Below are positions 9,399-30,500 of a stretch of DNA of 64,000 nt, piece after piece. This DNA comes from Parietichytrium sp. I65-24A. Its lineage: Eukaryota > Sar > Bigyra > Thraustochytrida > Thraustochytriidae. The translations under genes and the position numbers were made by a program. A model generated the notes under the pieces. That model saw only the letters and a program-made list of their open reading frames with translations, was not told where the DNA came from and did not search any database. The number at the start of each line of letters is the position of its first letter. Position 1 is the stretch's first letter. The stretch covers positions 67,797 to 131,796 of the forward strand of contig BLSF01000048.1 in assembly GCA_012862575.1 (NCBI GenBank), in the 5' to 3' direction.

Positions 9399-12300
9399 TT
9401 ATGTAAAATCGACACCTCTAATGTCTTTGATGTCTTCCACAACAGCAAGTGGAATCGGGTTTCCACCCAAGTAGAACACCTCTCCGGTCACACTGAAAAC
9501 CTTTAGTGCATCTCCGAGTCCAGACGAGATGATAGACTGATCAAAGCAATTAAACTGCATCCATACCCTCTGCAGATTTCCAAACCCTTGACCAAATATT
9601 CTCATTGCGCCTTCACAGGTGAAAAGATTCCAGCCTAGCTTTAGCTCCTCCAGTATCGGGGAGCCTGCAAGCACTTTTGCGAGTGCCACCTCGAGCTCTA
9701 CCGACCCTTGACCGGTGCTTCCAAGAGAATTATGACTCAAGTTGAGATACTTGAGAGTGTGAATCTGCTCAAGAGCCACGCATATCTGTGTCGTGCAAGA
9801 GTTGTTCAGCTCGGTCTGGCTAAGGTTCAAGGAGCACAGTTTCGAGAACGCAAAAGCCTTTGGTCTGCTATCTAGGGCATTTTTAAGTGAACATGCAAAT
9901 TGCGCTCCAAGCTTGTTCCTCGACAGGTCCAAATTCTCGAGGCCACATGTACTTGGGAGGCTAGAGATAAGGTCGGCACACATTGCGTCATCAAGGCAAT
10001 TTTCGCGCAGAGAAAGCAGACGCAGAGGTCCCAGGAGATCTTTCAAGCCCTGCAAAAGACCGTCCACCCCTGCTTTGCCGGTGTGAAAGTGCGAAAAATC
10101 AATCTCTATTGCGTTGTCCGCTGAGGCTGCAGCAGTTGGAATCGGTAATGGAGGAAGACGGTCGCAGGAGACCGTTTTGGGGCTCGATTTGTCATAGAAG
10201 CGTTTCGCGAGAAGAGAGTTCTTCCTCCGTGGGAACACAGTACTAGTGGGGGACCTCGTAGTAAGTTTACTTGCTTGATGAATGCCCCCAGTGCTTGATT
10301 CAAGGCTAGGGACGCTTTTTGCGTGGCTCAAAATAGCCCCACCAGGGACTGGAGTATTGTTTGTGAAGATGTTGCCCCACTCCCAATCTTCGTCCCATTC
10401 CCAGGTACGATAATCCCATTCCACTTTTTCTTTGATCTTCCTCTCGTTTTCGAGTTTGAGCCACAAACTCGCCAATCCCCTGCGCGAGCGATTTTTTAAG
10501 TACGAAAGATCTGATGCCTTGCGGGTCGCGTTCATAGTGAGCAACGACTCCCAAGCCTCTCCCTTGTAGTCGCTGGGCATCTCTACAATATTGAGCTTTT
10601 CGCAGACATTCCTAACAAGCCTGTAAAAAAGCTTTGTCTCTGCATCCGAGCATGCCCGAGAGTCGGCGGCACGTACGATATGTCTTCGCCTATCCTCTTC
10701 GAGAGCTACTATCTTCTCCTCTCTCTCTGTTGCGAGGCGTAAACCCGTCAAAATCTTGGCTCGCTCCGCCAACCACGATCCAATGAGAAAGTGCAGGAAT
10801 GAGTCAAGGGTTACAACCGAGTTTGATGCTTGGCCATCCTTGCCGGCAGTTCCCCCAACTGCTCGAGCGTTGCTATTCTTTTTTGGCTGGTTGCGCGAAA
10901 GCTTTTGCAAGCTCGTGAGAAAGGAGCTTTTGGTCTCGACAGACCAAGGCCGACTCACCGATTTGCTGTCGCATAAGGAATCATATGCTTTCAGGTTCCA
11001 TGCGGTTGAATCGCGAAATAGAATTTCGTGAACCCTTTGTGCCCGCTCTGAACTTATACATCCACATCCGTCTCCAAGGCCAAATACGTCCCTAAATTCT
11101 GCAGGGCTATCGAATGAGGCAATCGCAGCATCGAAAAATACTGTCGAGGCCAGTGAAGTGTGATTTTCAGGACTGAATACCCCAACAAGCTTTGCGAACG
11201 TGGACACTCGCTCGCCCTGGTTTGCGAATTGCCTGAGGGCTCCCGCAATCTCAGCAATATGCTGGTCCGTCATTTTCTTCACTCCGTACTGTTTAAATGT
11301 AAATTCGTACACAAAATTGGACAACGGATCAACCGCCTTTCTATCTCTGCACTTTCTCAGCCAGCAGTCAAAAATTTCGTTCATCTCGATATACAGTGAT
11401 CGAAGACTGAGCTTACGCTGATGTGCACCTTCCGATTGCGCTTGAACAATCGCTTTCTGAAACCCGTCCGGGGGCTCCTTGTAGTACGGAATGTCGAAAC
11501 CAGCTTTGGCGACAGGAAATCGCGAAAATGTATCATCGATGTCATCCGTCCGAATGTCGAGCATACCCCCTGACCAAGCGAGCAGGAACTTGCTTTCGTC
11601 GTCCTCATCGCAATCTTTGGTATCGTCCAAATTTACCGAGCCCGTCGCTTGCTCCAAATGGTCAGGGCTACGCCACCTTCCAACTCCAGAGTCTTCCTGA
11701 ACAATTGAATCCATATCTCTCTCGGACTTCGCCACAATGCTTCTTCCTGACTTGTCTTCTACGTCTTCGCGGTCTGACAAAGACTTTGCGGGCGCTCGAC
11801 TCTGCTTCTTTTGCTGAATTGGCTCCACGAGGTCAAACGCCTCGTCGCAAATCTTTTTGAACCTGAAATAGCTTTCGCGCCCCGGAAGTAGTGGTGCGCT
11901 CTTTCGCATGCAAGATATCAACATTAGTTAATGTGCACAAATGTTTCGGCGTGATGCACGTATATATGCAAACTTACGTCACAGATTAGGCAAAATATCT
12001 CTTTTTCAGGGTCTTCAAAGTCTAAACTGCGGCCCGGCGAACCGCCTCCACCAAGCGACTTTGCACGACCAGTGCTCTCTGACTGACAGATGACATCCCC
12101 GATTGGCCGGATCATGGTTTTCGCATGCGGTCGAGTTCGCTTAGCTCTTCCCCTCTTCTTCTGACTGTCAGCACTCTGTTTTGACTTCTTGTCACGTGAA
12201 ATCTCCTCTTCATCTGCGCTTCCCAAAACTTTGCGATAAAACGTCTCTCCTTCATCGTCAAACAAAACAGCAATTGTCTCTTTGCTCCGCGCACACTGTT

Positions 12301-13961: not shown

Positions 13962-14603
13962 ATGGGCGAAAAGGTCCTGTCGTCTCTGCCTTTGCAGATC
14001 TTACTCTATTTCAACGGGGCCTTCGCAGTTTTGTTCTTCATCATCGAGCTCGCTGTTTTTATCTATAAAGGTGAGTTTTCCCAGTGGAAGAGTTTATGCG
14101 GGTGGGGCTCGTCGCTGTTAAAAACTTTGTGCTTACGCTGTTTGAGGGTTTGCAGGAAACTCATTTTTATATGCGAACGGGGTGTTCACCGTCGAGATCG
14201 TTTTCTTAGTCCTGTACCTTCTGCTTGAGAAAGTGAGACTCTTCCAAGGTAAGTTTCGTAGTCATAATTGAGAAGGTGTCGTGAGCAGCCTTGCAATATG
14301 CCCCGTACGGCAGAGGATCTTGCTTTTCACGGAAGGTGACGTGTAACGCTGCTTCGAGGGCCGCTAACTTTTTCCGACTGTGCAGCCTCAAAAGGGAACA
14401 AGATTGAGCAAATTGGGCCGCTCGCATGGTCCTTGCTTCTGTCCATCGGAGTTACAGTCATCCACATCTTTTACTTTCAGCTCCAGACATACGTCTTGAA
14501 GATTGATCGGATATTGAATGGAGCTGGCCTTGTGTTCGTCGCTGTGGAGGGCCTTCTCACGGTTCTCACTTCGTTAACGTTCTATCGAGACTCCAAATTT
14601 TAA
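13962..14603 (+). CDS. TMEM216/TMEM80-family ciliary transition-zone membrane protein
   Basis: Three small exons read by hand: 13962-14070, 14156-14248 and 14386-14603; donors GTGAGT and GTAAGT, acceptors TTGCAG and TGTGCAG, with a CTAAC branch site in intron 2. The 139-residue product has four hydrophobic segments. Family signatures are SLPLQILLYFNGAFA at the start, LYLLLEKVRLFQASKGNKIE across the exon 2/3 join, IGPLAW, and LQTYVLKIDRILNGAGLVF. Human TMEM216 is of similar length (about 145 residues). Family members sit in the MKS/tectonic module of the ciliary transition zone and gate ciliary membrane traffic. TMEM80 or TMEM17 are the alternatives within the superfamily. It implies that this organism builds cilia or flagella. 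Confidence 0.87.
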
Positions 14604-15325: not shown

Positions 15326-18300
15326 ATGGCAGACGGCGCACTAGCTAGTCCGAATGGCTGGGAGAAGTCTTCCTTTGTGAAAGGCACGGAGGCTTTGGTC
15401 ATTTCAGTGCACTGTGCACGTGATTCGGTTTGCATTGCCGCCAATAGTGGGTTTGCTGCAAATGGCAGCGATCGAGAGCCATGGCAAACTCATTATTTCG
15501 AAATCAAAGTTCAACACCTGGACGGGAACATGGTGATAGGGCTGGCTTTCTTCCCTGACAATGATAGTTACCCCGGCTGGAAGCACGGGTCATTCGGATT
15601 TCACAGCTCGGGCGAATTCACTTGCGGTTCAATCGCGCGCTCAGAGATTGTGGGGAATTCTGCATGCGTTAGGCCTTTTCAAGCCGAGGATACCGTTGGT
15701 TGCGGCTGGGTTCCGTACCAGAGACTGCTCTTTTTCACTTTGAATGGTCAACTTGTTAGAACTACTGTGAAAGTGAGCGTTGATGACTACCCCCTTGGCG
15801 TGGATGAGATCTATCCAGTGGTTGGCTTCCAGGCAGAGTCAAGTGCGATCGTTCTTGGAAATTTTGGCATTGGTACTCAATTTGTTTGGGAGGATGCAAC
15901 CCCAGATCAGCTTCGCCGAGGCTCTCTTAAGGACACTCCGATCTTCTCCGTCTTGTCGGCCAATGACGACGAGAGAGAGCTCTCAGCGCCTGTCAATGCC
16001 CCCGATTCCTTCACCACGTCGCAAGCGGGTCTAGCTTCGGACACATCCCAAGGCTATGTACATGTCACGACTAGCGAGAGCTCCAAGCACACAGAAGGAG
16101 AGCGCGAAGTGAATCATTCGTCCTCGACATCAGCCGGCGTAAAAAATTCCCAGAAAGGAGTTATAGCGAACAATTTATTTGCCTCAACAGTATCGATGCT
16201 GATGCGCACAGCGCGAAGCAGAAGGCGGATGGGCGCAAAGCATTACATGCACCCGAATTCGAGTAGCACATTTACGAATAGTCCTTCGTCAACACACGAT
16301 CCCTTTGCTCGTGGCGCATCTTATTTTGGTGTTCCAGCATTAGGTTCAGATATAACTTCCGCGCTTTACGAGCGACTCATAGGCTCTGACGACATTGACG
16401 ATGAGGAGAGCAAGGACGCGAATGTCGTCAAGCTGTCAGAAAAGTTGGGGACCATGGACCGTGAGCTGGCGGAGATTAAATCTCTGATCTCTGGGAACCC
16501 CGATGAAGCTCGAAGGCGCGCGACTCTTCTGGAAGCCCAGCATCAAAAGCTGAGACAAGAGTGGATAAACATGATCGTTAGTGAGACATCCGAGTCTACG
16601 TTGGCCAATCTGCTTGAATTAATAGGTCGGCTGTTTGATATTATTGCTCGCACACAAGAAATCGTGTCTGCTATCCCTTCGCCGGCTGAAGTGGACGACT
16701 TTGGCAATAGAATAGGTGGCTCTGACGACCCGAGTCCGAGAATATCTGATGAGGAGACGGAGGGAAGGCCCCTCGGTGACGAGGACGTGCACTCCGAAGG
16801 TGCCGCAGAGAAAGAGGGTTCAAAGAGCGAGTCCCAAGTATATGCGGAAGAAAGCTTGGATGACCAATCGGAGGCAATTGAAGCTGGGGAACACGGATTC
16901 GCTGGTGAGGACTCTGCAAAAACAAGACCAAAGCCAACGCACTACGGCGTGTCTCAGGGCGCGGCAGATACAATTCGAGACTTGCTATTCTACCTGCGTT
17001 CTGGGAATGAGACAATACAGTCCAACGCGGCATACAGTTTATTTTTCCTTGTCCTCGAGGATCAGAACGATCCTGTCAGAAATCACAGCTATATCGACGC
17101 CTTACAAGGGGGAGCAATTAGCACGCTGGCTTTTGTTTTAGAAAAGCACCGTGCTGGCGAAAATGCAAGACTTCGATACGGAGTGTGTATGGCGATGGTA
17201 GCAATAGCTTCAGGCGCCTGGGTGGATGTTTCGTCTGCTCATGTGGCCGGTATCGACGCGAAAACCTCTAACACTACCAGTGACGTTCAAGAGCAAAAGC
17301 GATACGCCATGGACAAGTCCATTGCTGCGAATTTGTTTCTTTCCGAGTTGCCCAGCGTCCTGATGGCATGCGAAGTACTCTTACGAGAAAGTTGTTTCTG
17401 CTGCCAAGGCGCCCTCCCCCTTCGGACAGAATCGTTCTCGGGATGCTCGATGATCATTCGAGAGGTAACGCTGGCTATTGCGAATTTATGCCTCATCTTC
17501 CATGCACATGCACAAGACTCAACGCAAAATCGTGGTTCTGGAACGGCCTCGATTGCAGAGCTTTCTAATATCAGCGCCTCTCGCGACCCGCTCATGCAAG
17601 GAAAGCAGGTGGCTTGGGCGTCCGATATGGTGACACGCGCAGTGCCACTGCTTGTAGAAATTTGTTGTACAATAATGAACTCGCAGAGCAGCATCAAGGA
17701 CAGCAGCGACGAGATTTGCTTCACAGAGTCCTGTCGAATGGCTTCTTTCACCTTGGCTCTACTCTCTCAGTATCCATCCACGCACCAGAGCATGGTTGAT
17801 CACGAAGTGCTGCCTTTGCTCGTTCAATTCATGTCTCAGAAAGATCCCGAGCTCAACTTGCATTCGCTATCTACTCTATACTGGCTCACTAGCACGGCGG
17901 TCCCTCAAATTGACACTGCAACTGTGCACAGTTTCGGGAATCACTCAAAGTCGACATTATCTCGCCACCTCAAGCACTTGGGAAAGGACTATTTGGAGAA
18001 GTATGTCCTTGTTGGATTCATAGTGGCCCATCTAATACAGCTCAAGATGTTCAATTTCTTGCTGCAGTTGGCAAGTCAAGACGCGCCATTACCATTGAAT
18101 CTCCGTTGCGTTCTTACAGCGTGTTTTGCGTCGCTGTCGGCGCTTGGGCCTTGCGAAAGCAAGTTTTGCCATCGAAAAAGCTGCCTTGCCATCTTAAGTT
18201 TAGCAAGCAAGATCGTGACTGAGCTACCAGATGAAAATGGAGCGATTTACTCCGATGAAGGACACCGGTTCAGTGAAGAGGAGGCCACGGACGTGGAACG

Positions 18301-21300
18301 CTTGGTGGCACAATCACGCAACTTTGACCTGCGGAGCGTGGGTACGGGTGAAGTTGATCTTCATAAAAGTTTTTCGGCGAAGCAGCATCGCGTCTCCAAT
18401 TCATGGCCTACAGCGCCTTCGAAGGATGGGCGCGTCGGGCGTGTTGCGAAAGAATTTAGCTTCAGCAACAATATCATCACGGACTCTGGCACAACACTGT
18501 CGGCAGCTCGAGGAGAGATTCGCCGCACGGTGTCTTCAAGCTCGAGGCGGAAGGTAGATCTCGACAGAGTTAGAGGAGCTTCGTGTGACTCGCTCCCCGA
18601 CAAGGTGCTGGAACTGCGTTATCTCTCCTTGATGCTCAATAATCTCTTCGAAAGGGATTTCATTCTCACGGTGCTCCGGGAGAATCTTGATCAATACTGG
18701 TCTATCATTGCTCGCCTTTGTGGGTCTCAAGACTCGTTTGTTGCATTGTATGCCCTACGAACTGCTTCCCGTCTCTCGGAGAAATTCCCCCAAGTTTGCG
18801 AGGCGCTAGAGAACTGCAAAATATCGACTTGCATCCTAGAAACGCTCGTTGCTCATTCAGACGAAGAGAGGCACGGTGGTTCCCGAAGTGAAGTCCAAAA
18901 CGAGATTCTCATTCACGCCTGGGTTCTTCTCGGGAACCTTTCGAACTCTAGCTGGGTGTCTCGGGTGAGCGTTATTGAGAGTGACGCTATCAGGTACTCG
19001 GTGGACACCTTGTTTGGAATGTACCAGCTCGATTCGGCGGACAACGCAGAGCGGAGTACCTCATCCACTAGTCTTACAGCATTGTCAAAGCTGAACGGAG
19101 ATGAGGAGTCTCGGAAGATTGTAGTGCGGGAGCCTGAAGGAATGGAGATTGAACTCACTCGCCAAGCCGTGCGCGTGCTTGGAGGATTGGCCGAAGGTGT
19201 TGCCCAGATCCGACTGAAAAATTTATTCTCTGCGGACGAAAGGAGTGAGGAGTCCCCGAATGAAGAAAGGACCGAACCGCTACTTCCCATTCGAAATGAA
19301 GACGATCTCGCGCGATGGCAAGTTGTCTCGAGGCTTTTTCTGGAGCAATCGGACCAACTCCTTTTGATTACAATTATTTTGCTTGGCTCTCCGGCGCCTG
19401 CTGTCCAGTGCGAGGCATGCCGTGCCCTCGCTTTCATCACTTGTTGCCCGTTCTCAAGTACTTTGAATTTCGAGGTCGCGCGGTTAGTGTTGCGATACCT
19501 CGTTCAGCTCGCCGAAGGCGGGCACAGCGACAGACAGCTTCAGCGGCATGCGGAAGAGGTTTTGGTAGGACTCGGATTTCGGGAAGGCTGTAATGACATT
19601 CAAAGATGCGAGAGGGATGCAACAGAGCTATTCAACTGGCATATCATGCTGCAGTCTCTTGAACAACAACGTGCCATACACTGTGCCATTTTTGCGGCGA
19701 CGTGGTTCTCGTGGAACCCCTTGCTCCCGGCGCATGAATCGTGCGCAAATTTCTTGGAGCTGGCAAGGTCTTCGGACGTGCTGGAGACCTTGTTCATGGC
19801 TGAAATGCTCTGCGGCGGATTGCAAACTGCAAACAACCCCCCCGAACTGCTCTATGGCGCGGCGTTCCCGGACAAGGTGCAAATGTCCTTTTCCGACCGA
19901 AACCCTCCCAGTGGCAGCTTCGCAGATTCAAGCTCCTTCGAAAACCAGCCATTGCTGCGGAAGCACAACTCCCTGGTCGACTTGCGCTGGCTTCGGAGAA
20001 TGATTGGATGTGGTATCCGTGCAATCGTTGCATACGATTCTGACGACGAGGATAGCATTCGGGTGTACCAACCTGAGCTTGAGAACCCCGGTCCTCAGGA
20101 GAGGAAAGAGGACGCGCGGAACCCGTACTTGCCTCGAATTAACAGCGAGAGCAGTGAGTGGCGCTCATCTTTGCTTGCGTACCTTCAATCCACGCTGTCG
20201 ATATCTCGAGACTTTGCATCTGGATCTTGCTCCTGGGATGTCAAAGCAAAGGACCCCATACACCAGGTTGCAAGCGATCCTAGGCCAGGTACCCGAGGAT
20301 ATGCTGGTAGCCTCCCAAGGGCGTTCGTGGAGGTGATGCAGAGCCAATACCCATCCGAAGTCCAAAGACGAGCTATTTTGATGCCGCGATTTAACCTGTC
20401 GGAAGCTGAGAATTTTAAAATTCAACACTTTGTGCCGAAGGTTCCACTGGTGATTGAGGTGGCGAATGCCAAAGATTTGACGGCGATTTGCAGCCACATG
20501 ATTCAGTGCATAATTTCGAAGCGATACTCCGAATTTGCACCACGGGCGCTTTGGTTTGAGCGCGCAGATGAGAAGAGTGGTCCCCAACTTCGCCGAGCAC
20601 CCGGTCTCCGCAGATATCAATACCAGATGCCAGCTGCAGATGATTGGCATTTGAAAGTCGACAACGTAGATATTGTCGAGGAACCAGAGCAGTTTCAGTT
20701 CAACCTGAAACACTGCCTACTGCGATTTCCGTCCATCACATCTGTATGCATAAAGATGGACTCCCATAGTAGAGCCTCACAGTCAATGTATTTGAGCGCC
20801 TCCAAACGCGCGGGATCGGGTGGGAATTCATCGCGCAGGTCGAAAACCCACCTAGGCTCCGTGTTTGAATCTCTTCCAAACAGCGTGACGTGGTGCACAT
20901 TTGACGGATCCCTTGGTGTCTCGGATCTTGAGGCGATTACTAATGTGGTGTCCATGGGAAAGATGACCTTGCAAGGTTTGGCGATTCGAAATTGTGGGTT
21001 CAGCGGACCTCAGATGGACAAATTTTTCATGGCTTTGCAGCCTCTAGAGTCCTTCGGGGATACTTTGCGCAACAATGTCAGGTTTGGGGCAACACCAAGC
21101 AAATCGAGGCACCATCTGCGCTTCTTGGACCTGGCCGGCAATCGGCTTGGAGATCAAGGTTGTGCTCGGGTAATTTCTGTCATCGCAGACAGCAATTCGT
21201 ACGGCACTCTTGAAAGCCTCGGAATTTCTGGCAACGACATTGGGCCAGATGCAACCCACACGCTGCACGCTCTACAAGGACAAGGAGCGAAAAGGCTTGG

Positions 21301-23660
21301 TCTGCTATCAGCGAATACTAATATCCAAGAGCTGTTTCTTGAAAACAATGGAATTGGGGAACGCGCCGCGGCTGCAATTCTCCAACATTTGGTTAAATCG
21401 TTATGCTCTCTCAGGTTTCTCAGTCTTCGCTCAAATGGAATTCAGGGCCCGCAAGTTGAAAATGCGCTGTTGGAGGTGCTCGTGACACCATCGAATCTCG
21501 TAGAGCTGGATTTGGGGGACAATCATCTTTCGTCGAGTTGCGGGGATCGCATTGCCGCATTAGCACATCTGCAATTGCTTTTTCTGGTGTTGGAAGGGAA
21601 TCGCGACATTTCTCCCGCAGTGCAATTGCGCGTGGAAGGGCTACTCTGTTTTCGAAGAAAGGAGTGGACCACAGAGCGCGTGTGCAAGGGAGAGGTGTTT
21701 TCAGTCTCCCAGGCAGTTGTCGATCCCGGGCCTCGAGATGAAGACTATCCTGGTGGTAGTTTGCTGGGCCCAGCCCCTCTACTTGCTGGCTCCGGGTCAG
21801 ACTCCGAGTTTGAAGGCGTTTACCCAAAGCGCCCGAGCACATGGCTTGGCGCCGCAAAGACGCTGACTGGATTGCAAAGCAGCAGCAAGCTTCATGCACC
21901 GATGTCACCCGAGGAGGATACTACGTTGTCTCAACTTTCGTCGGGTCGTAAGGACCCCTCGGAGGGCGGCGAAGTCCCCAGTAGCAACAGTTTGGCCAGA
22001 CTTGAGGCCCGGCCACGGCTTTCTGTGCTTTTCTCAATCCCTCTGGTAAGCGTCGATATGAACAAGCTCTCGCCGCTGGACAGTATTGCATATGAAAATG
22101 AGATGAAAATGATCAATGGGATATTTCAAGAGGTTTCGTCTGGGGTCGACCTATCATTTGGTTTCGCCACGGAAACGCGTCTATCTATGGAGATGAGTTT
22201 CCATTGCAGCGCAATACACTATTCCGGGTAAGTTGGCGCGAAAAATATGCAGGGATCGCATTTAGAACGGAAGGCTAACTTTCAACATCGTCTGAACGCT
22301 CAACAAATCTACATGACAACAACACAAAAAATCACGCAGGCACGGCAGTGTTGACAAGTTGCTATTTGAGCACGAAGAGAAAATTGGTGCTGGCCGAGAT
22401 ATTCACATAGAGACGCTCCGTCAGATCGCGCGTATCGGCTCTGAGGACGGCAAGTCCGGAGTCAAGTTTGTTTTCGTTTCGGCCTGTCACTCCGAAGCGG
22501 CGGGTCGTGTCTTCGTCGGAGCCGGGGTTCCACATGTTGTCTGCGTAAGAGTGGATGCAAGGGTATTGGACACGGTGGTGTATATGTTCACGCAGCGATT
22601 TTATCGCTCACTTGCGCTGGGAGAGACTGTCCAAGCCTCTTTCGACTCGGCTCGCAGGGACGTGAACAGGGAGAATTTTGCGATGATTGAGAAGACCCCA
22701 GGGAACCAGTTTCTCCTCCTTCCTGAAGAGGCCAACCATGATGTTCCAGTGTTTCCTCGGCCACAACATATCCTGCCTCGTCCAGCAAATGCTCCCCGAT
22801 TGTCGCCTAACGGGCTCTCGGAAATGAAACACGCTGCCGAGGAGCGCAATAAGCTCTGGCGTTACTGCTTTGTGCCGCACAATGGGCAGTTTTTCGTGGG
22901 ACGGAAGCTTGAGACATACCACGTGCTGCAGCTTGTCCACAGACACAAAGTTGTCTCCATCACCGGGCCGCCGGGCATCGGGAAGACTTTTGTTTCTATC
23001 ACTGCCTGCAACTACATGCTAGAAAGAAAATCTTTTCAAGATGGAGTAGTGTTTTTGCGTCTGAATGATGTGTCAACTTTGTCAGGATTGTTGGACCTCT
23101 TCGGCAAGATGACTATGGAAAGGCGGCATGACAGGCAGATTCTTCAGCTTGATTCGAGCCCCGAGTTCCAGAAAGGAGATTCCGAGGAGCCTCGCATCGA
23201 AAAGCTCTGTGACGTGATCAGGTATCGAAAATTCTTGCTCGTCTTGGACCACTGCGATCAACTCATACAGTCAGAGCCGCGTTTACGTCATTTTCTCGGA
23301 AGGCTTCTTGACGAGGTCGAGCACATCAGACTGTTATTGACGTGTACGGAACCGCCGCGCGAGATCCCTGGGTACTCTGCCCAGGAGCGGCGCCTTCGGC
23401 CCTTGCCATCCGTCGATGCCGTGGAACTATTCCTCCGTGTGTGCAAGCATGCAAGAGTCAAACAGATTCGTTTGCGCCCTGTTGACAGCGAGTATGGAAT
23501 GCTAAACGCTCTTGCAGAAGACGATCTTTTCACGAAAGAATTGAGAGGTTTCCCGAGTCGGGTGTGGACAAAGGCTTGCGGCATGACGCCTGTTGAGCTC
23601 GATGGCCTTCTCAATCGATGCAGTCGGTCTATTTCCCAAAGACAAGAGGAATCCGGTTGA
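15326..23660 (+). CDS. SPRY / ARM-like / LRR / CHAT / NB-ARC multidomain protein
   Basis: Two exons, 15326-22227 and 22340-23660 (112-base intron, GTAAGT...CACGCAG), 2,740 residues. Residues 22-190 form a SPRY domain (YFEIKVQHLDGNMVIGLAFF, PGWKHGSFGFH, VGCGW). About 367-420 is a charged coiled coil. About 540-1530 is helical with ARM/HEAT character (AADTIRDLLFYLRSGNETIQ). About 1850-2110 is RI-type LRR (LRFLDLAGNRLGDQGCA). About 2230-2450 is a CHAT domain with both catalytic residues: His2302 in IHYSGHG and Cys2350 in VSACHSE. About 2490-2700 is an NB-ARC-like NTPase with Walker A GPPGIGKT (2510-2517), Walker B LLVLDH and a GLPL-like GFP; no winged helix or TPR follows. CHAT domains are caspase/separase-fold proteases, so an NLR-like sensor with a protease effector is inferred. 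The join rests on the restored SGHG motif. Confidence 0.85.
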
Positions 23661-26600
23661 TGGATATAACGTTGACACACTCTTGTTGTACTTGGGACTA
23701 TTCTTCCGTTTTCCATGATTAGGCTGTTGCTTTACATTTTTGATGTTTGTTTTTTCTTTCACGAATCAATCAATTGATTTTTACAGTTAATTATAAAAAC
23801 ACCCGAACCGCTCTCTCAAAGTCTCTCAAATGACATCCTCATCATGATCATGATCATGGTGCGCGGGCTTCGGGGCGGTTAGCGCGTGCCGAGTAGGTCG
23901 GTGCGGTTCGCAAACGAGAACTCCCGTCATTTCACAGAGCCATGTCGCTTGGGCAGATGTCCAAATTTCCTGACATCTACTGTACTCATCTTCCGTACGA
24001 CATTCGGTAAGTTGAAACCTTCTACCACACCAGTACTCGACCAATCACTATGTTGGCCCTTGGCGTCGCATATAAGAGTATCATTTGAAACGCTCTCAAG
24101 CTCATAGGATGCGCGCCATTGCAAGATACTGAAACATTTGCAACAAAGTTCAGATTCAGCAAAACTTCCCATGAGAATTCCGTCCAAGAACACGTCTTAG
24201 GGAAGGTGTAATACGTTCTCATGTATTTCTGTAGACCAATAGACGAATTAAATCTAGGGCTTAATGCCGCCTAATCGAAGGTATGACCCCAAGGCGTGAG
24301 AACTTTCGAAGGTTACTCGACTATGTAGCGATTCGTATTTGCACCAGAGGTACTCGGACTCACGGACCACCCGGACTCCTGGGACCTTCCACTTATTTCC
24401 AGTTCTTGAGCACTAACCTACTCTAAAAGTTTTTTGAGGGTGTGGTGTGCTACCTTGTGATAACTAAATTTAGAATTTAGATAGTAGAGGCTACAGCATC
24501 GGTAGTCAGCCTCGCACATTCGAAGGCCAGGAGCTTACCGTGTACATAGTGTGCTGGTAGCTTGGTTCGACAAGGTACGACCTTGGGTGGAACAAATGCT
24601 TCGTTAGGAGTAAGAGTGTAGCGGTGTTTTGAGTCAGAGGATCCTAGAGGATTGCGTGACATCAAATAGGTGACAATAATGGCCTGTCCTCACCTTTCAA
24701 GCATGAGAACTTTTGCAGAGAGGAGATTCCGAAGGCAAATAGTTATAGCGTGTCGATGCCAACGTCCTAGGATTGCAACAAATACAGAAATGCGTTTTCA
24801 CAATTTTTCGAAGCAGTTATCGGGCTTGGTAAAGAATGTTAAAGGCGGAGATAGAGCTTATCCTTAGGTGACTCCATAGCAGAGGAAAAGAGTTACCCCT
24901 AGTATTGTCCGCTGGTTGCTTTTCACCGCCGAAATTCCCATCAGATGCAGCATAACATCGATACCGGTACCGGTAAGCTACTGCCAGCGAGTACCAGCAT
25001 TACAGCAACGCATCTTGTTTGAAAGTAATTTTCAGAATTCAGAACACGACAGAGAGTCTTGTAAAAGTCGAGCAGAGTCTTGTATTCCGCTGATGTCTCT
25101 CTCGTCAATCATCGTCAACCAGGAATGGTAGGTTCCGATATTAGTACTCACAGTACCAACCTAAGAGCTTTTGTGGCCAGAGTAGCACTAGTAGCACGTG
25201 AAAATACATGAAAGCTACTGTTGGTCGCAGTGAGAAGATTGGTTGGCATGCTATTAGTGCGGACTCCTTTTTTTGGTGCAATGAAACGAAAGCCTTTGGA
25301 AGCGGCCACTCTTCTGAAATCCTGAAGTTATTTTGAACGCCGAATTCTGAATTAAAGCGCCAGTCACACTAACTTATGTCATCCTCCCGTTTTTAAACAT
25401 TTTCCAAAGAAAGGGGAATGAGGCGTTCTCTCCCAAGACCTATTCCCTCTCTACTGGGACAAGGTGGGAGCTTTGAGGATTTTCAGGGTCGACCATTTGA
25501 GAACACTTGACGCGTCCTCCTTTCACACGGAGTCATTTGCTACAGGCAATTGATAGCCACTAGTATCACAAACAAACCAACTAATTAAATCCATAGTATT
25601 AAAGTTAAGACAGGGATAGCTGGGGGTATCGGACTGTGCGTGGAGTTTGCACAGAATTGTGTGGGAAGGAGGAAACCGAAGGCTATTGCAAAGACTACCA
25701 GCCCAGTATCGGTTGGCCCTGTTGCGTGCCGGCGAAGTAGTGGGAAAAAGAAGGAGATTCCATTGTCGTACGACAGGAGAAGGAAGGAGAGCTTGCCACG
25801 GCGCGTAAGACCACCCAGTAGGCGAGTGAGGAGAAGGAGGAGAAAGAGAAAGGGGAAGAGAGGAGACATGGAAATTGATAAAGGGAGAGAGAGGGGAGAG
25901 AGAGAGAGAGAGAGTTGGAAAGGTACTGACATGAGGCATGGGAGTATGGAGGGCTATACAGACATCTAAGGACCTTACGGTACAGTATTACGCCGGTGCC
26001 TAAAGGGTTCTGTAGCGCTACTTTGCCAAACGCTGAATATGCCTAATAGACCTAATAGGCCTAACAGTGCTTGGTCTGCTTGGCTTCTTTCTCCCGCGAT
26101 CCCCGGCAGGGACTTTGTCACTTGCTCCGTGTCTCAACGCGCCTTCCAATTCAACCACCTCCAGCTGATCGGTGCTCCCGCGGTTTGGCGCATTTCGCCT
26201 GCACCCTCTACGCACGCACCAATTGTACCGGTCCCTGGTTGCGCTCGCTTAGCTCGGTTTGACTGCCTCAGGCGCCTCAGGTACTCCAGACGGCTTCAAG
26301 AGTTGTGTGTTCACTCTCCTGTCCCTTCCTCGGCAAACCTATCTCTGCGTCAGTCAGACAGTCAGACAGTCCGCTCTCTTGCAGTCAGTCCTTCGTGCGA
26401 CTGGCACCATCCCGACTCGCTTCTCTCATTGCGTGGCGTTTGTTTGTGAACCCGTTCTACCCTCCGGGGCAGTCACGCTACCAGCGACCTCTGAAGCGGC
26501 TCAGATTCTCTTTTGCTTTGCACCGAAGGGCGGCTGCCTTCGTCGTAGTAGTCTTTTGGTGCGGTCTACAACACTTCCCACTTCCTCGTTACGCGCTCGA

Positions 26601-26715
26601 GGTGCTGCGAGCGTTCCATCGCCTGCTGGAGACCTACTGCCAGACAACGTGACCGCGACTTTTCTTATCGGCGTCGGGGAAGGTCATCTCATCGCAGCAC
26701 TTCCTGCTTGGCACC
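23661..26715. other. 3 kb gene-free region
   Basis: No frame here shows recognisable protein sequence or plausible exon chains. It holds a CATGAT repeat (23838-23860), TTCAGAA heptamer pairs (25031-25044, 25342-25354), a purine-rich tract with a GA run (25830-25915) and a GC-richer, CT-rich 26040-26700 that is probably the promoter and leader of the RGS gene. Confidence 0.55.
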
Positions 26716-27312
26716 ATGCTACGCCCAGCAAAGCCTTCATTTCGCTTCTCCAGGCGGGCGAGCTCACAGACGCAGAAGGTACGGAGGCGTCAGCAGAGCA
26801 ACAGCACAGCAAGCTCCGAAGACTTGACCTTGAGCAAAGTGGAGCTGGACCTAATCAAAATCGTTGCGGATAAGTCTCTGCTGAGTAGCTTCGTGAGCTT
26901 TCTTCAGATCCAGCACTGTGCCGAGAATTTGATGTTTTGGTTGAACGCAGAAGCCTTCAGCAGCGTGATGGACGAGAGCAAGTCGTCTCGTCTTGGGGTC
27001 AGCATGAATGAATCAGAGGTGCGCGTTCAAGCCAGACAGATTTTTGATAGATACTTAGAGAACAATGCCCCTCGATGGGTTTGCGTCGACCCGGGCGCAG
27101 TTCATACCATTCGCCAGGTCCTCAACGGCGACGACAAAGGGCCACTTCCAAGAAACCTCTTTGCTGAAGCCCAGATGCAAGCAAGGCAAACCCTGGAAAG
27201 GGATGCACTGCCTCGGTTTGTGAAGTGCGTCCTCGACAACACTCTTCCCACCGTCAGTGTGGAGCCACGTGTACGAAGCATGATTCAGAGCCATCAAAGC
27301 TGCCACTGTTGA
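26716..27312 (+). CDS. RGS-domain protein (regulator of G-protein signalling)
   Basis: Single exon, 198 residues, ATG in a good context (CACCATG). After a basic, Ser/Arg/Gln-rich N-terminus of about 50 residues, residues about 52-175 form an RGS domain. LLSSFVSFLQIQHCAENLMF with WLNAEAF is the typical first half, and ARQIFDRYLENNAP and the later RFVKCVLDN region match the later helices. RGS domains speed GTP hydrolysis by G-alpha subunits. No second domain, lipidation site or membrane segment is obvious. It implies heterotrimeric G-protein signalling in this organism. Convergent with the oxidase gene at 27565. Confidence 0.85.
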   Translation: MLRPAKPSFRFSRRASSQTQKVRRRQQSNSTASSEDLTLSKVELDLIKIVADKSLLSSFVSFLQIQHCAENLMFWLNAEAFSSVMDESKSSRLGVSMNESEVRVQARQIFDRYLENNAPRWVCVDPGAVHTIRQVLNGDDKGPLPRNLFAEAQMQARQTLERDALPRFVKCVLDNTLPTVSVEPRVRSMIQSHQSCHC

Positions 27313-27564
27313 TTTGGCCCCAAGCAAGGCTGGCAGTGTGCCTCGCATCGGGGGGGGGAGAACACGATCCGCCCTTCCGATGCAAAATGTTTACAAAATC
27401 GTGAATGTAATTGACTGACTAAAACCAACATTGTATAATATAAATTTGGAGGAGAAAAAAACGTGTTCACATTTGTTCACATGAATGAATGTTATGAATG
27501 AATGAAGAAATACATCCTATGACTACTAGCAAGGAGTACAGTAGAAATCTAGTTGCCACGGTTT

Positions 27565-30500
27565 CTACGAGGCGTCGCTGTCAGCAGTATCGGATGTAAC
27601 ACTTGCCATTCGGGAGTCGTCATCATGATCATCATTGTCATTGTCATCAGGCTCGGAATCTGAATCTGAGTTCGAATCGGAATCATCGTCCTCGTCAGAG
27701 GAGGTTGCGTCGCTAGAGTCGGACCTCTTGCCTCGTCGCTTCGTCTTGCGGCAGAGATCGGCAAGCGACTGGTAACTTATCGAGAGGATGCCTGCAATGC
27801 TGAGCATCCAGAGCACTACGGTTTTCTTTTCCTCGAGAACGCTCTCGTCTGTCTCGGCAAAATTCAGTAATCGAAGCACAAAGTAGTCCTCTTCGAGCAA
27901 ATCGGGATCGCTGTATCCTGAAGCAAGAATCTTGTCATCCTTCGCGAAGAAACGGGTGGCGGACCCGCCCCAGAACCTGTTTTCCGGATCCCAATGTTGT
28001 CGATACTGCAGGAACGCGATTGCGACCTGCTTTGGAAAGATTCCATGCATAACCTCTGGATTGACAAAGGGAACTGGAAGCTTCGCCTGCTGCTGGTGGT
28101 ATTCGTCCTCAAAGTCCTTTGACCTATACATCTCTCGGTACAGGTCGAGCTCCAAATCACCAAAGAACTCAACCTCTTGCTCGATCATTGCGGAGGCTGA
28201 GCGGTACATATTCAAAACGTCATTGTACTTGTCGCTGCCCTCTAAATTGTTCAGCTCATTTTGCATCAGCTCTCGCATCTGCACTGAAGGGTCGTGAATG
28301 TGTGAGGACTCCTCATAGGTGATTGGGGGGGATCCAAAGAACGATGCGAAGCGGCTTTCCGACCCTTGATGGAATTGCATCTCAAATCTCCTTTTCAGCC
28401 GCAAGAAAGCTTCGCGGACTCGCCGAGCGCGCCGGAAATTGCTCTTCAATGAGTCCATAATCAGTTCGTTGCTTCTCGCCTCTGCATTGCCTCCTCCTGG
28501 AGAGCTGTAGGTGTGGAACCCGTAAGCACTGCTAAGATGCGGAAAGACTGGATCGCTCCTGAAAGCTTCGAGCCAGCGTCTCTCCAATTCCATCAGCGCG
28601 TGCCGCCAGCCTGAAGTGTCGTCACATCTCTGCTTAGAAAGGCCACCCCGAGACTCCTCGCAACGAACATTTGCCTTAATTTCTATGTTCACAAAATCGC
28701 CGTTGTACAGCCCTTTAGGTTGCAATACCTGTTTCTTCTCCAATGTCAGGAATCGGAATTGAACTGGGGCGTCGCGGAACTGGAAGTGGGCATTCTTGAT
28801 CACCAAATCCCGCACCAAGGTACGGTAGATATCGAGGGCTTGAAACAGCTTGTTCAGAGGAAAGTAGTAGCTCAGCGAGACCGTCTTGTCCGCGCCGAGC
28901 ATCCAAAATCCATCATTCAGGCGTTCGCGAGAGTCGTTCACCGCTCTTGCGAGCTTGTCTGTCCAAGCCGAACCACCGGACGCATTTGGGTCGCCTTCTC
29001 CACTTTTGTGCATTTCCTGACTCGGACTTTTACTCGCATCCCACCACGTGGGAGTTGCGCTCTCCTTCCGAGTCGGAAGACCGAAGACTGTGCAGTGCTC
29101 AATAGCACTCGACATTTCAGCATAGTTTGCCTTTATCTGATCTTCAGTTGGATTTGGCTTTTTTCTTAGCCTACAAGACTGAGCCGGAAGCAAGTCGCCT
29201 AAGCGATAGCGATACTCGCAAAACTCAGGAAAGTTGCACGCCATCCGTTGCAGATCGAACGTGCAATCGCTATCCGAGGCAAAAGGGCTTCGCAAAGAGC
29301 CCGTTACGAAGGATAAGCCTGTTGCTTTCGGCTCCGCTGTAATGTAGCCCACCCCAACCAGCTCATCCGTCCAAGGATCGAAAAGATACTCAGCCCCAGC
29401 TGCGCCTGGCAAGAGCGAGCTAATTGCAGCGTCAAGATACCATGGGCTCCATTGATGCACCAAAGTGTTTCTGGTCCCCATGGAGAAAAATGGCCTGTAC
29501 TCCACTTCTATCTCGACACCAACCACGAGTCCAATGAGTCCCATACTGTTTCTCCACATGGCCAGGTCCATCGCTTCGGAGATCTCGATGATTCTCCCAT
29601 CCCCGAGCGCAACACGAAGGCGAGTCACATAGTTGTTTAGAAATGACTTGCCGAAACCGCCTCCTTGGACCATGCTCGTAACCATAGCCCCTGCAGTGAT
29701 TGCCCAATTCAGAGGTGTCGTAGGAAGGTGCCATTTGAGCGGCCGAATAACACTGTTTAAACGCATTAGGGTGTGACCAGCCTCGAGACGCACACGACCT
29801 TGTTCCTCAAGCCTGTGGCGCAGGCCTTCTAAATTCCCCAATGCCCAACTCGAATCCTCAGGAGCGCGATACTTGGCCAACGAAATACCGACGCTCATAT
29901 CCTCCATTGCGCTCAGACTTATGCCACTTTCGCTGTGTCCAGTGCCGACAGGACGAACCTTGCAGCCTGCGTCTCCAATTCTGCGAAGGATGTCCCGGAG
30001 ATGCGTGTCGTTTCGAGGAAACAAAATCGGTGCATTGCTTGCCAGCATGCCACTGCGCGTGGAGAACGTGAAATCTGAAATCACCCCACAATATTTAGTC
30101 TGCGCTCTCCCAGCTCCAATAGTTGCCGACCTTGGCTTCCCTTCAAAATATGACTCCAAAGCGTGGCGGGTGTCTTGTGAAACACGTAATGCACTGCATT
30201 CTGCAACATCCTCATACTGCAATGGAGCTGCGTGCGGCCTCACGCTAACACTGGGAGAGTCCCGCCCTTCGTATGAACCGGTGCCTGAGTTCATGCCGAA
30301 TGCAGAAGGGAAAGGTTGCGAAGCAACCTTGCTGGCGCTATACTCACCATCCAAGCCAACCGAATTCACTTGGTGCAGGCTGCCAGAACTTTGAGAACTC
30401 AGCTTGATGACGCAGAAAAGAATGATCAAAACTGGGAACAAGTGCCACACCCAATTTGATCCGTCAAGCACCTTTCGTTTCCAAGCCTTCTTGCCAGTCT

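What the first reader, a model, noticed from the sequence alone, without database searches (positions are those of the whole stretch)
15326..23660. NLR-like giant protein: SPRY, ARM-like, LRR, CHAT and NB-ARC in one chain
Seen: SPRY motifs at the N-terminus, a helical repeat middle, RI-type LRRs, a CHAT domain with both catalytic residues (His2302 in SGHG, Cys2350 in SACHSE), then an NTPase with Walker A GPPGIGKT and Walker B LLVLDH. Known: CHAT is a caspase/separase-fold protease; NB-ARC plus LRR is the core of plant NLR immune receptors; bacterial CHAT proteases act in defence and cell death. Here LRR comes before the NTPase, the protease sits between sensor and switch, and SPRY is at the start. 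I do not recall this order being described. Inference: a self-contained sensor, switch and executioner protein for immunity, self-recognition or cell death.
Basis: partly seen in the sequence, partly recalled or inferred. Interest (0 to 1): 0.85.

Follow-up and report, generated by a model that had tools for sequence, protein, structure and literature searches.

The report
NLR-like receptor fused to a CHAT protease
A protist gene encodes a 2,740-residue protein that joins SPRY, armadillo-like and leucine-rich repeat parts to a caspase-like protease and a nucleotide switch, a build related to fungal and bacterial cell-death receptors but with the recognition parts on the other side of the protease.

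Summary
Exons 15326-22227 and 22340-23660, joined across a 112-base GT-AG intron, give one 2,740-residue chain: SPRY, armadillo-like helices, RI-type LRRs, CHAT, P-loop NTPase. The intron cuts CHAT: joining raises its score from 21.8 to 39.7 bits (cut-off 24), and a bacterial CHAT-NB-ARC-TPR protein aligns across the junction and both domains (E 5e-36), so two separate genes is unlikely. His2302 and Cys2350 align with the same residues in two paralogues, the bacterial protein and a solved SAVED-CHAT protease. "NB-ARC" should read "STAND-like NTPase": NB-ARC only just reaches its cut-off, and the chain ends before any winged helix or C-terminal repeats.

New here: the same genome holds two more CHAT-NTPase genes with other attachments, a STAT-type SH2 and an EGF repeat with a possible membrane helix. 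I read them as one receptor-protease core with exchanged input parts.

CHAT-bearing receptors are known in fungi and bacteria, so this is a new variant of a known kind. A defence or cell-death role is inferred, not shown. The Pfam gasdermin model found nothing, and no other eukaryotic genome could be searched.

The parts
15326..22227 (+). Exon 1: SPRY, helical repeats, LRR and first part of CHAT (residues 1-2300 and two bases of codon 2301)
   Evidence: ORF; splice; codon bias
15488..15859 (+). SPRY domain, residues 55-178
   Evidence: Pfam PF00622 32.6 bits, cut-off 26.3; PDB 9qww/8bv0
16943..19765 (+). Armadillo/HEAT-like helical region, about residues 540-1480 (Arm best stretch 823-851); the outer limits are my estimate
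   Evidence: Pfam Arm 27.7 bits, cut-off 20.6; HEAT_2 below its cut-off; all-helical low-confidence model of residues 531-1000
21095..21637 (+). RI-type leucine-rich repeats, about residues 1924-2104
   Evidence: Pfam LRR models; RNase inhibitor and other LRR chains
22052..22227 (+). CHAT domain, part in exon 1 (from residue 2243)
   Evidence: Pfam CHAT on the spliced product, 39.7 bits; aligns with L049, C2 and C23
22228..22339 (+). 112-base GT-AG intron inside the CHAT domain
22340..22673 (+). CHAT domain, part in exon 2 (to residue 2412)
22341..22343 (+). Predicted catalytic His2302
22485..22487 (+). Predicted catalytic Cys2350
22893..23660 (+). STAND-like P-loop NTPase (Walker A GPPGIGKT from 22965; Walker B FLLVLDH), ends after the GxP-like motif RGFPS
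   Evidence: AAA_16 / NB-ARC; model matches ORC chains and Sr35; motif positions

Best explanation
A one-chain, NLR-like receptor protease. The N-terminal SPRY, armadillo-like and LRR regions bind a ligand or a guarded host protein; the C-terminal STAND-like NTPase binds nucleotide and drives self-association; this brings CHAT protomers together so that the His2302/Cys2350 protease cleaves a substrate and sets off defence or regulated cell death. Shown by sequence: domains, dyad, P-loop, continuity of the coding frame, kinship to a bacterial CHAT-NB-ARC-TPR protein and to two paralogues with other attachments. Inferred: ligand binding, nucleotide-driven assembly, proteolysis, and the defence or death output. 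I put about 0.75 on a regulated receptor protease of this type and about 0.4 on immunity or cell death as its purpose; the confidence below is for the whole statement.
For: The intron falls inside CHAT, and joining raises the CHAT score from 21.8 to 39.7 bits. L049 (a Ca. Aminicenantes MAG, 911 aa, CHAT-NB-ARC-TPR) aligns with residues 2230-2673 at E 5e-36, across the junction and both domains. Paralogues C2 and C23 repeat the CHAT-NTPase core (E 1e-21 and 3e-25) with an SH2 or an EGF repeat attached. His and Cys are invariant in 4 of 4 rows of A2 and aligned with 8tl0, E 1.5e-15, which a paper identifies as SAVED-CHAT. SPRY and LRR are protein-binding folds (general knowledge). In fungi a TPR-bearing CHAT protease was shown to activate a gasdermin, and NLR or NLR-like proteins with CHAT lie beside gasdermin genes (passages).
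Against: No winged helix, MHD motif or C-terminal repeats; tblastn of the rest of L049 against 23401-27600 found nothing. The second Walker B acid is His and no sensor-1 Arg is seen (LLLTCTE), so hydrolysis is doubtful (sequence reading). The NTPase part of the profile matches Clp/AAA+ chaperones about as well (E from 0.002) as NLRs, and the model matches ORC best. No gasdermin by the Pfam model, and no recognisable substrate gene among the six neighbouring ORFs scanned. The sensor part is single-copy: of two matches at E 0.01 or better, one is itself and one an LRR hit, unlike expanded NLR families. The window protein matches L049 better (126-136 bits) than its own paralogues (90-101), so a recent radiation within this genome is not shown.
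Confidence: 0.5

Rival explanations
1. A regulated protease with a housekeeping job (cytoskeleton, cilium or cell division), in the manner of metazoan TPR-CHAT (TTC28) or separase; SPRY, ARM and LRR are scaffolds for endogenous partners.
For: Single-copy sensor part. TTC28 is described as acting in cytokinesis (PMC12314368 passage). The neighbouring TMEM216-like gene suggests that the host has cilia.
Against: A STAND-like NTPase next to CHAT is the receptor arrangement, not the TTC28 one; the closest hit is a bacterial CHAT-NB-ARC-TPR protein.
Confidence: 0.3
2. Two adjacent genes (SPRY-ARM-LRR and CHAT-NTPase) mistaken for one.
For: The only cue is the low-complexity linker at residues 2105-2225 between LRR and CHAT, whose in-frame codon score (+0.059 bits per codon) is no higher than that of the intron (+0.055).
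Against: LRR and the first part of CHAT share one stop-free exon; CHAT is split by the intron and is whole only after joining.
Confidence: 0.05
3. An enzymatically silent scaffold: CHAT and NTPase kept for binding only.
For: His in place of the second Walker B acid and no sensor-1 Arg (sequence reading); NTPase without the following winged helix.
Against: The dyad is retained in the window protein, both paralogues and L049, and Walker A is intact.
Confidence: 0.15

Closest known systems
Fungal NLR-type proteins with an N-terminal CHAT effector (beside gasdermin genes)
   Same: CHAT protease N-terminal to a STAND NTPase in one receptor chain (passages of PMC10197012, PMC9815663, PMC12881547)
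   Different: Fungal NLRs carry their repeats (WD40, TPR, ANK) C-terminally; here SPRY-ARM-LRR lies N-terminal of CHAT and nothing follows the NTPase. No gasdermin found by the Pfam model
Bacterial CHAT-NB-ARC-TPR proteins (L049, Ca. Aminicenantes MAG)
   Same: Homologous CHAT-NTPase core, E 5e-36 over residues 2230-2673
   Different: The bacterial chain starts at CHAT and goes on past NB-ARC (to residue 458) to TPRs
SAVED-CHAT and TPR-CHAT (Craspase) CRISPR-linked proteases
   Same: CHAT protease; profile match to 8tl0, E 1.5e-15, dyad aligned
   Different: Switched by cyclic oligoadenylate or a guide-RNA complex (PMC11417357 passages), not by a fused NTPase
Plant NB-ARC-LRR receptors and APAF1
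   Same: STAND NTPase, with LRR in the plant case; weak profile matches to NRC4, At5g66900, Sr35 and APAF1 (E 0.003-0.04)
   Different: Reverse order, protease in the same chain, no winged helix or MHD motif, NB-ARC score at the threshold; Clp/AAA+ chaperones match the profile about as well
Metazoan TPR-CHAT (TTC28), expanded in corals
   Same: Eukaryotic CHAT behind an N-terminal repeat array (PMC12314368 passages)
   Different: TPRs instead of ARM/LRR; no NTPase mentioned for that family in the passages seen

Membership tests
CHAT protease (PF12770) | Pfam model over cut-off | tested here: met
   39.7 bits against 24 on the spliced product; exon 2 alone 21.8, below
CHAT protease (PF12770) | His/Cys catalytic dyad | tested here: met
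   invariant in 4 of 4 rows of A2; aligned with 8tl0
CHAT protease (PF12770) | complete fold in a structure model | tested here: inconclusive
   only exon 2 could be folded; in its CHAT part 9 of 11 ten-residue blocks have pLDDT 71-87; no CHAT structure is named in the 50 Foldseek rows shown
CHAT protease (PF12770) | proteolytic activity | not testable with these tools
   needs purified protein
NLR / NB-ARC STAND receptor | NB-ARC-type P-loop NTPase | tested here: inconclusive
   NB-ARC 23.5-23.9 bits at cut-off 23.5, AAA_16 30.4-30.9 under cut-off 32.6; model matches ORC chains and Sr35
NLR / NB-ARC STAND receptor | winged helix / MHD after the NTPase | tested here: not met
   chain ends at residue 2740 after the GxP-like motif; no downstream match to the rest of L049
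NLR / NB-ARC STAND receptor | C-terminal repeat sensor | tested here: not met
   LRR lies before CHAT; nothing follows the NTPase
NLR / NB-ARC STAND receptor | nucleotide-driven oligomerisation | not testable with these tools
   needs biochemistry
SPRY protein | Pfam SPRY over cut-off | tested here: met
   32.6 bits against 26.3
RI-type LRR | match to RNase inhibitor type LRRs | tested here: met
   4peq 2.5e-8, 4per 2.7e-8, 1dfj 3.6e-6
Armadillo repeat | Pfam Arm over cut-off and superhelical fold | tested here: inconclusive
   Arm 27.7 bits against 20.6; all-helical model of mean pLDDT 49; 0 of 699 Foldseek matches at E 0.001 or better, catenins among the weak ones
Gasdermin-linked CHAT system | gasdermin gene in the genome or beside the receptor | tested here: inconclusive
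   PF04598 0 matches at E 0.1 in the genome, none among six neighbouring ORFs; the model may miss distant gasdermins and the search had no true positive control

The most novel reading that the evidence does not exclude
A ciliated protist has its own NLR design: a CHAT-STAND protease core, shared with bacterial CHAT-NB-ARC-TPR proteins, whose C-terminal sensor was lost and replaced by other input parts. SPRY-ARM-LRR senses the cytosol, a STAT-type SH2 couples to phosphotyrosine, and an EGF-membrane form faces outside, so that receptor and executioner protease are one molecule in each branch.
Probability: 0.3. Interest if true: 0.75.

Novelty: new variant of a known kind. Interest (0 to 1): 0.58.

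Why it matters
It would extend the receptor-protease form of cell-death control, known in bacteria and fungi, to a further eukaryote lineage, with input parts on the other side of the switch. Three paralogues with different attachments give a ready test of whether STAND switches need a winged helix and a C-terminal sensor, and of whether phosphotyrosine or membrane input can drive a caspase-like protease directly.

Tried and rejected
Rejected: a hidden downstream exon with a winged helix or TPRs (tblastn of the L049 C-terminus against 23401-27600 gave nothing; the C2 C-terminus gave only matches at E 4 or worse). A viral origin: 39 pattern matches in viral contigs, 0 confirmed. A known defence-system model: PADLOC 0 matches for exon 1 or exon 2; L049 gave a TPR model and SAVED_CHAT at 21.6 bits. 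NCBIfam gave only matches far under cut-off for the four proteins scanned. My first guess of a discoidin-like domain in the C23 ectodomain: Pfam shows only EGF-type and EB models there.

Plasmid search: 35 records match the spliced piece, none over 80% of it; the 15 rows shown lie in the linker and NTPase half. 105 records match the L049 piece, none over 80%; the 15 shown again lie in the NTPase half.

Naming the host: not achieved. The eukaryotic SSU family search gave no usable answer twice, an exact 18S pattern had no match, and the PfaA model gave 13 matches, none over cut-off.

Exon 2 gave mean pLDDT 59, residues 531-1000 gave 49.

Bacterial relatives in the L049 genome: 12 profile matches, 6 of which (L049 itself included) run across both CHAT and NTPase positions. 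In six further ORFs from it (L062-L066, L068) a strict regex found the His motif in 1 and the Cys motif in 3, one of these outside the matched stretch, so several may be degenerate CHATs. In alignment A3 the Cys column is invariant in 7 of 7 rows but the His column is not listed as invariant (rows were cut near it). No tree was built.
Full report
The window is nuclear DNA of a eukaryote: genes have GT-AG introns, and a neighbouring three-exon gene (13962-14602) encodes a Transmemb_17/TMEM216-type protein, 90.5 bits against a cut-off of 26 (the name TMEM216 and its ciliary role are recalled). The genome held is 42.5 Mb in 172 contigs; the window is C48:67797-131796. I could not name the organism.

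The gene. ORF 15326-22231 is 2301 codons long. A donor GTAAGT at 22228 and an acceptor ending at 22339 join it to 22340-23660 and give 2,740 residues. Of 16 AG acceptors tried, two keep the frame open to 23660 and only the one at 22339 restores the motif HYSGHG. Codon bias trained on six other ORFs of the window is positive in the reading frame in 27 of 28 blocks and best in frame in 27 of 28; the final 40-codon block is the exception. The linker between LRR and CHAT scores +0.059 bits per codon, but the intron itself scores +0.055 in the frame tried, so that number alone does not show the linker to be coding; the absence of stops and the domain evidence carry the argument.

Domains. Pfam finds SPRY (55-178), Arm (best stretch 823-851) and LRR_6 over their cut-offs in exon 1; HEAT_2 is below. 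Scanned in pieces, LRR_6 reaches 42.2 bits and LRR_1 29.0. Sequence search of solved structures puts the LRRs with RNase inhibitors (2.5e-8) and, at 4.4e-4, with 5irm, which I recall as NOD2; SPRY matches 9qww and 8bv0, secreted SPRY-domain proteins. The helical middle is all-alpha in a low-confidence model (residues 531-1000, mean pLDDT 49); Foldseek gave 0 of 699 matches at E 0.001 or better, with p120 and beta-catenin among the weak ones. So 'armadillo' rests on the Pfam match.

CHAT. Exon 2 alone scores 21.8 bits, under the cut-off of 24; the spliced product scores 39.7, E 5e-10. A profile of the window protein, two paralogues and one bacterial relative matches 8tl0 at 1.5e-15, with the histidine of GHG and the cysteine of the SAC motif aligned. 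8tl0 is the SAVED-CHAT structure (PMC11417357, passages seen). Both residues are invariant in 4 of 4 rows. That these two are the catalytic pair is recalled from the CHAT literature.

NTPase. AAA_16 scores 30.4-30.9 (cut-off 32.6) and NB-ARC 23.5-23.9 (cut-off 23.5). The profile's NTPase part matches Clp/AAA+ chaperones (E from 0.002) about as well as plant NLRs and APAF1 (E 0.003-0.04). The AlphaFold model of exon 2 has mean pLDDT 59; Foldseek's best matches are origin-recognition ATPases, with the plant NLR Sr35 at rank 5. This fits the STAND class, whose kinship to ORC/Cdc6 is stated in a passage of PMC8195603. Walker A is intact; the second Walker B acid is His and no sensor-1 arginine is evident (sequence reading against motifs recalled). 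The chain ends after the GxP-like motif; no winged-helix or TPR exon was found downstream. 'NB-ARC' is therefore too precise a label.

Relatives. In the same genome, a CHAT family search and protein searches give two further CHAT-NTPase genes, C2 and C23, and a CHAT-only gene on C85, weak in the protein search (E 0.014) but 28.6 bits by Pfam (cut-off 24). C2 carries a C-terminal SH2 (22.2 bits, cut-off 21) whose best solved relatives are STATs, first STATa at 3e-8. C23 carries an EGF_2 repeat (22.7 bits, cut-off 22.1) followed by a hydrophobic stretch at residues 304-322 (mean Kyte-Doolittle 1.85). This is a possible transmembrane helix only: a second stretch of C23 scores 1.84 and the window protein's own helical region reaches 1.81. 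A separate NB-ARC-TPR gene lies on C35. In the prokaryote collection (84,980 species) a pattern scan gave 66 candidate stretches and 7 confirmed loci; one, L049 from a Ca. Aminicenantes MAG, aligns over both domains. Its 911-residue ORF is CHAT-NB-ARC-TPR and matches residues 2230-2673 at E 5e-36. The window protein matches L049 better than its own paralogues, so the three eukaryotic copies are old or were acquired separately; no tree was built.

Function. Established: anatomy, dyad, P-loop, kinship. Inferred: SPRY, ARM and LRR parts sense; the NTPase promotes assembly; CHAT cleaves. In fungi a TPR-bearing CHAT protease was shown to activate a gasdermin, and NLR or NLR-like proteins with CHAT lie in gasdermin clusters (passages of PMC12881547, PMC10197012, PMC9815663). 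Here the Pfam gasdermin model found nothing in the genome, but it may miss distant gasdermins. Six neighbouring ORFs scanned and the TMEM216-like gene give no obvious substrate; one downstream ORF has an RGS domain.

Novelty. Papers holding 'CHAT domain', 'NB-ARC' and 'SPRY' together: 0; 'CHAT domain', 'armadillo' and 'LRR' together: 0. In the rows shown by the other searches (most listed only 8-20 of many papers) no title or abstract start described this order. The library holds only open-licence papers, so this is weak evidence of absence. Within those limits it is a new variant of a known kind.

Noticed in passing
L022:7047-9749 (G000 C2): A 900-codon ORF with CHAT, NTPase and a C-terminal STAT-type SH2 domain (best solved match STATa, 3e-8): a caspase-like receptor with a phosphotyrosine-binding end.
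   Followed up: partly
L023:3683-6445 (G000 C23): A 920-codon ORF with an EGF repeat, a possible transmembrane helix, CHAT and NTPase: a possible cell-surface CHAT receptor.
   Followed up: partly
L024:3747-6314 (G000 C85): A CHAT-only ORF (28.6 bits) with a long insert between the His and Cys motifs and a low-complexity tail.
   Followed up: partly
L025:4708-7473 (G000 C35): An NB-ARC-TPR protein (NB-ARC 29.5 bits, TPR_12 57.8 bits), a conventional STAND layout in the same genome.
   Followed up: no
G001 (genome of L049): The Aminicenantes genome holds 12 profile matches to the CHAT-NTPase core, 6 (L049 included) running across both domains; several lack recognisable dyad motifs.
   Followed up: partly
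13962-14602 (+): Three-exon TMEM216-like (Transmemb_17) gene directly upstream, a sign of a ciliated host.
   Followed up: yes
9402-11924 (-): Neighbouring 841-residue ORF with C-terminal LRR-like repeats (LRR_6 19.8 bits, under its cut-off of 23.4).
   Followed up: no
G000:C66:8562-22499: A 5583-codon reading frame with repeated matches to the PfaA polyketide-synthase-type model, none over cut-off.
   Followed up: no
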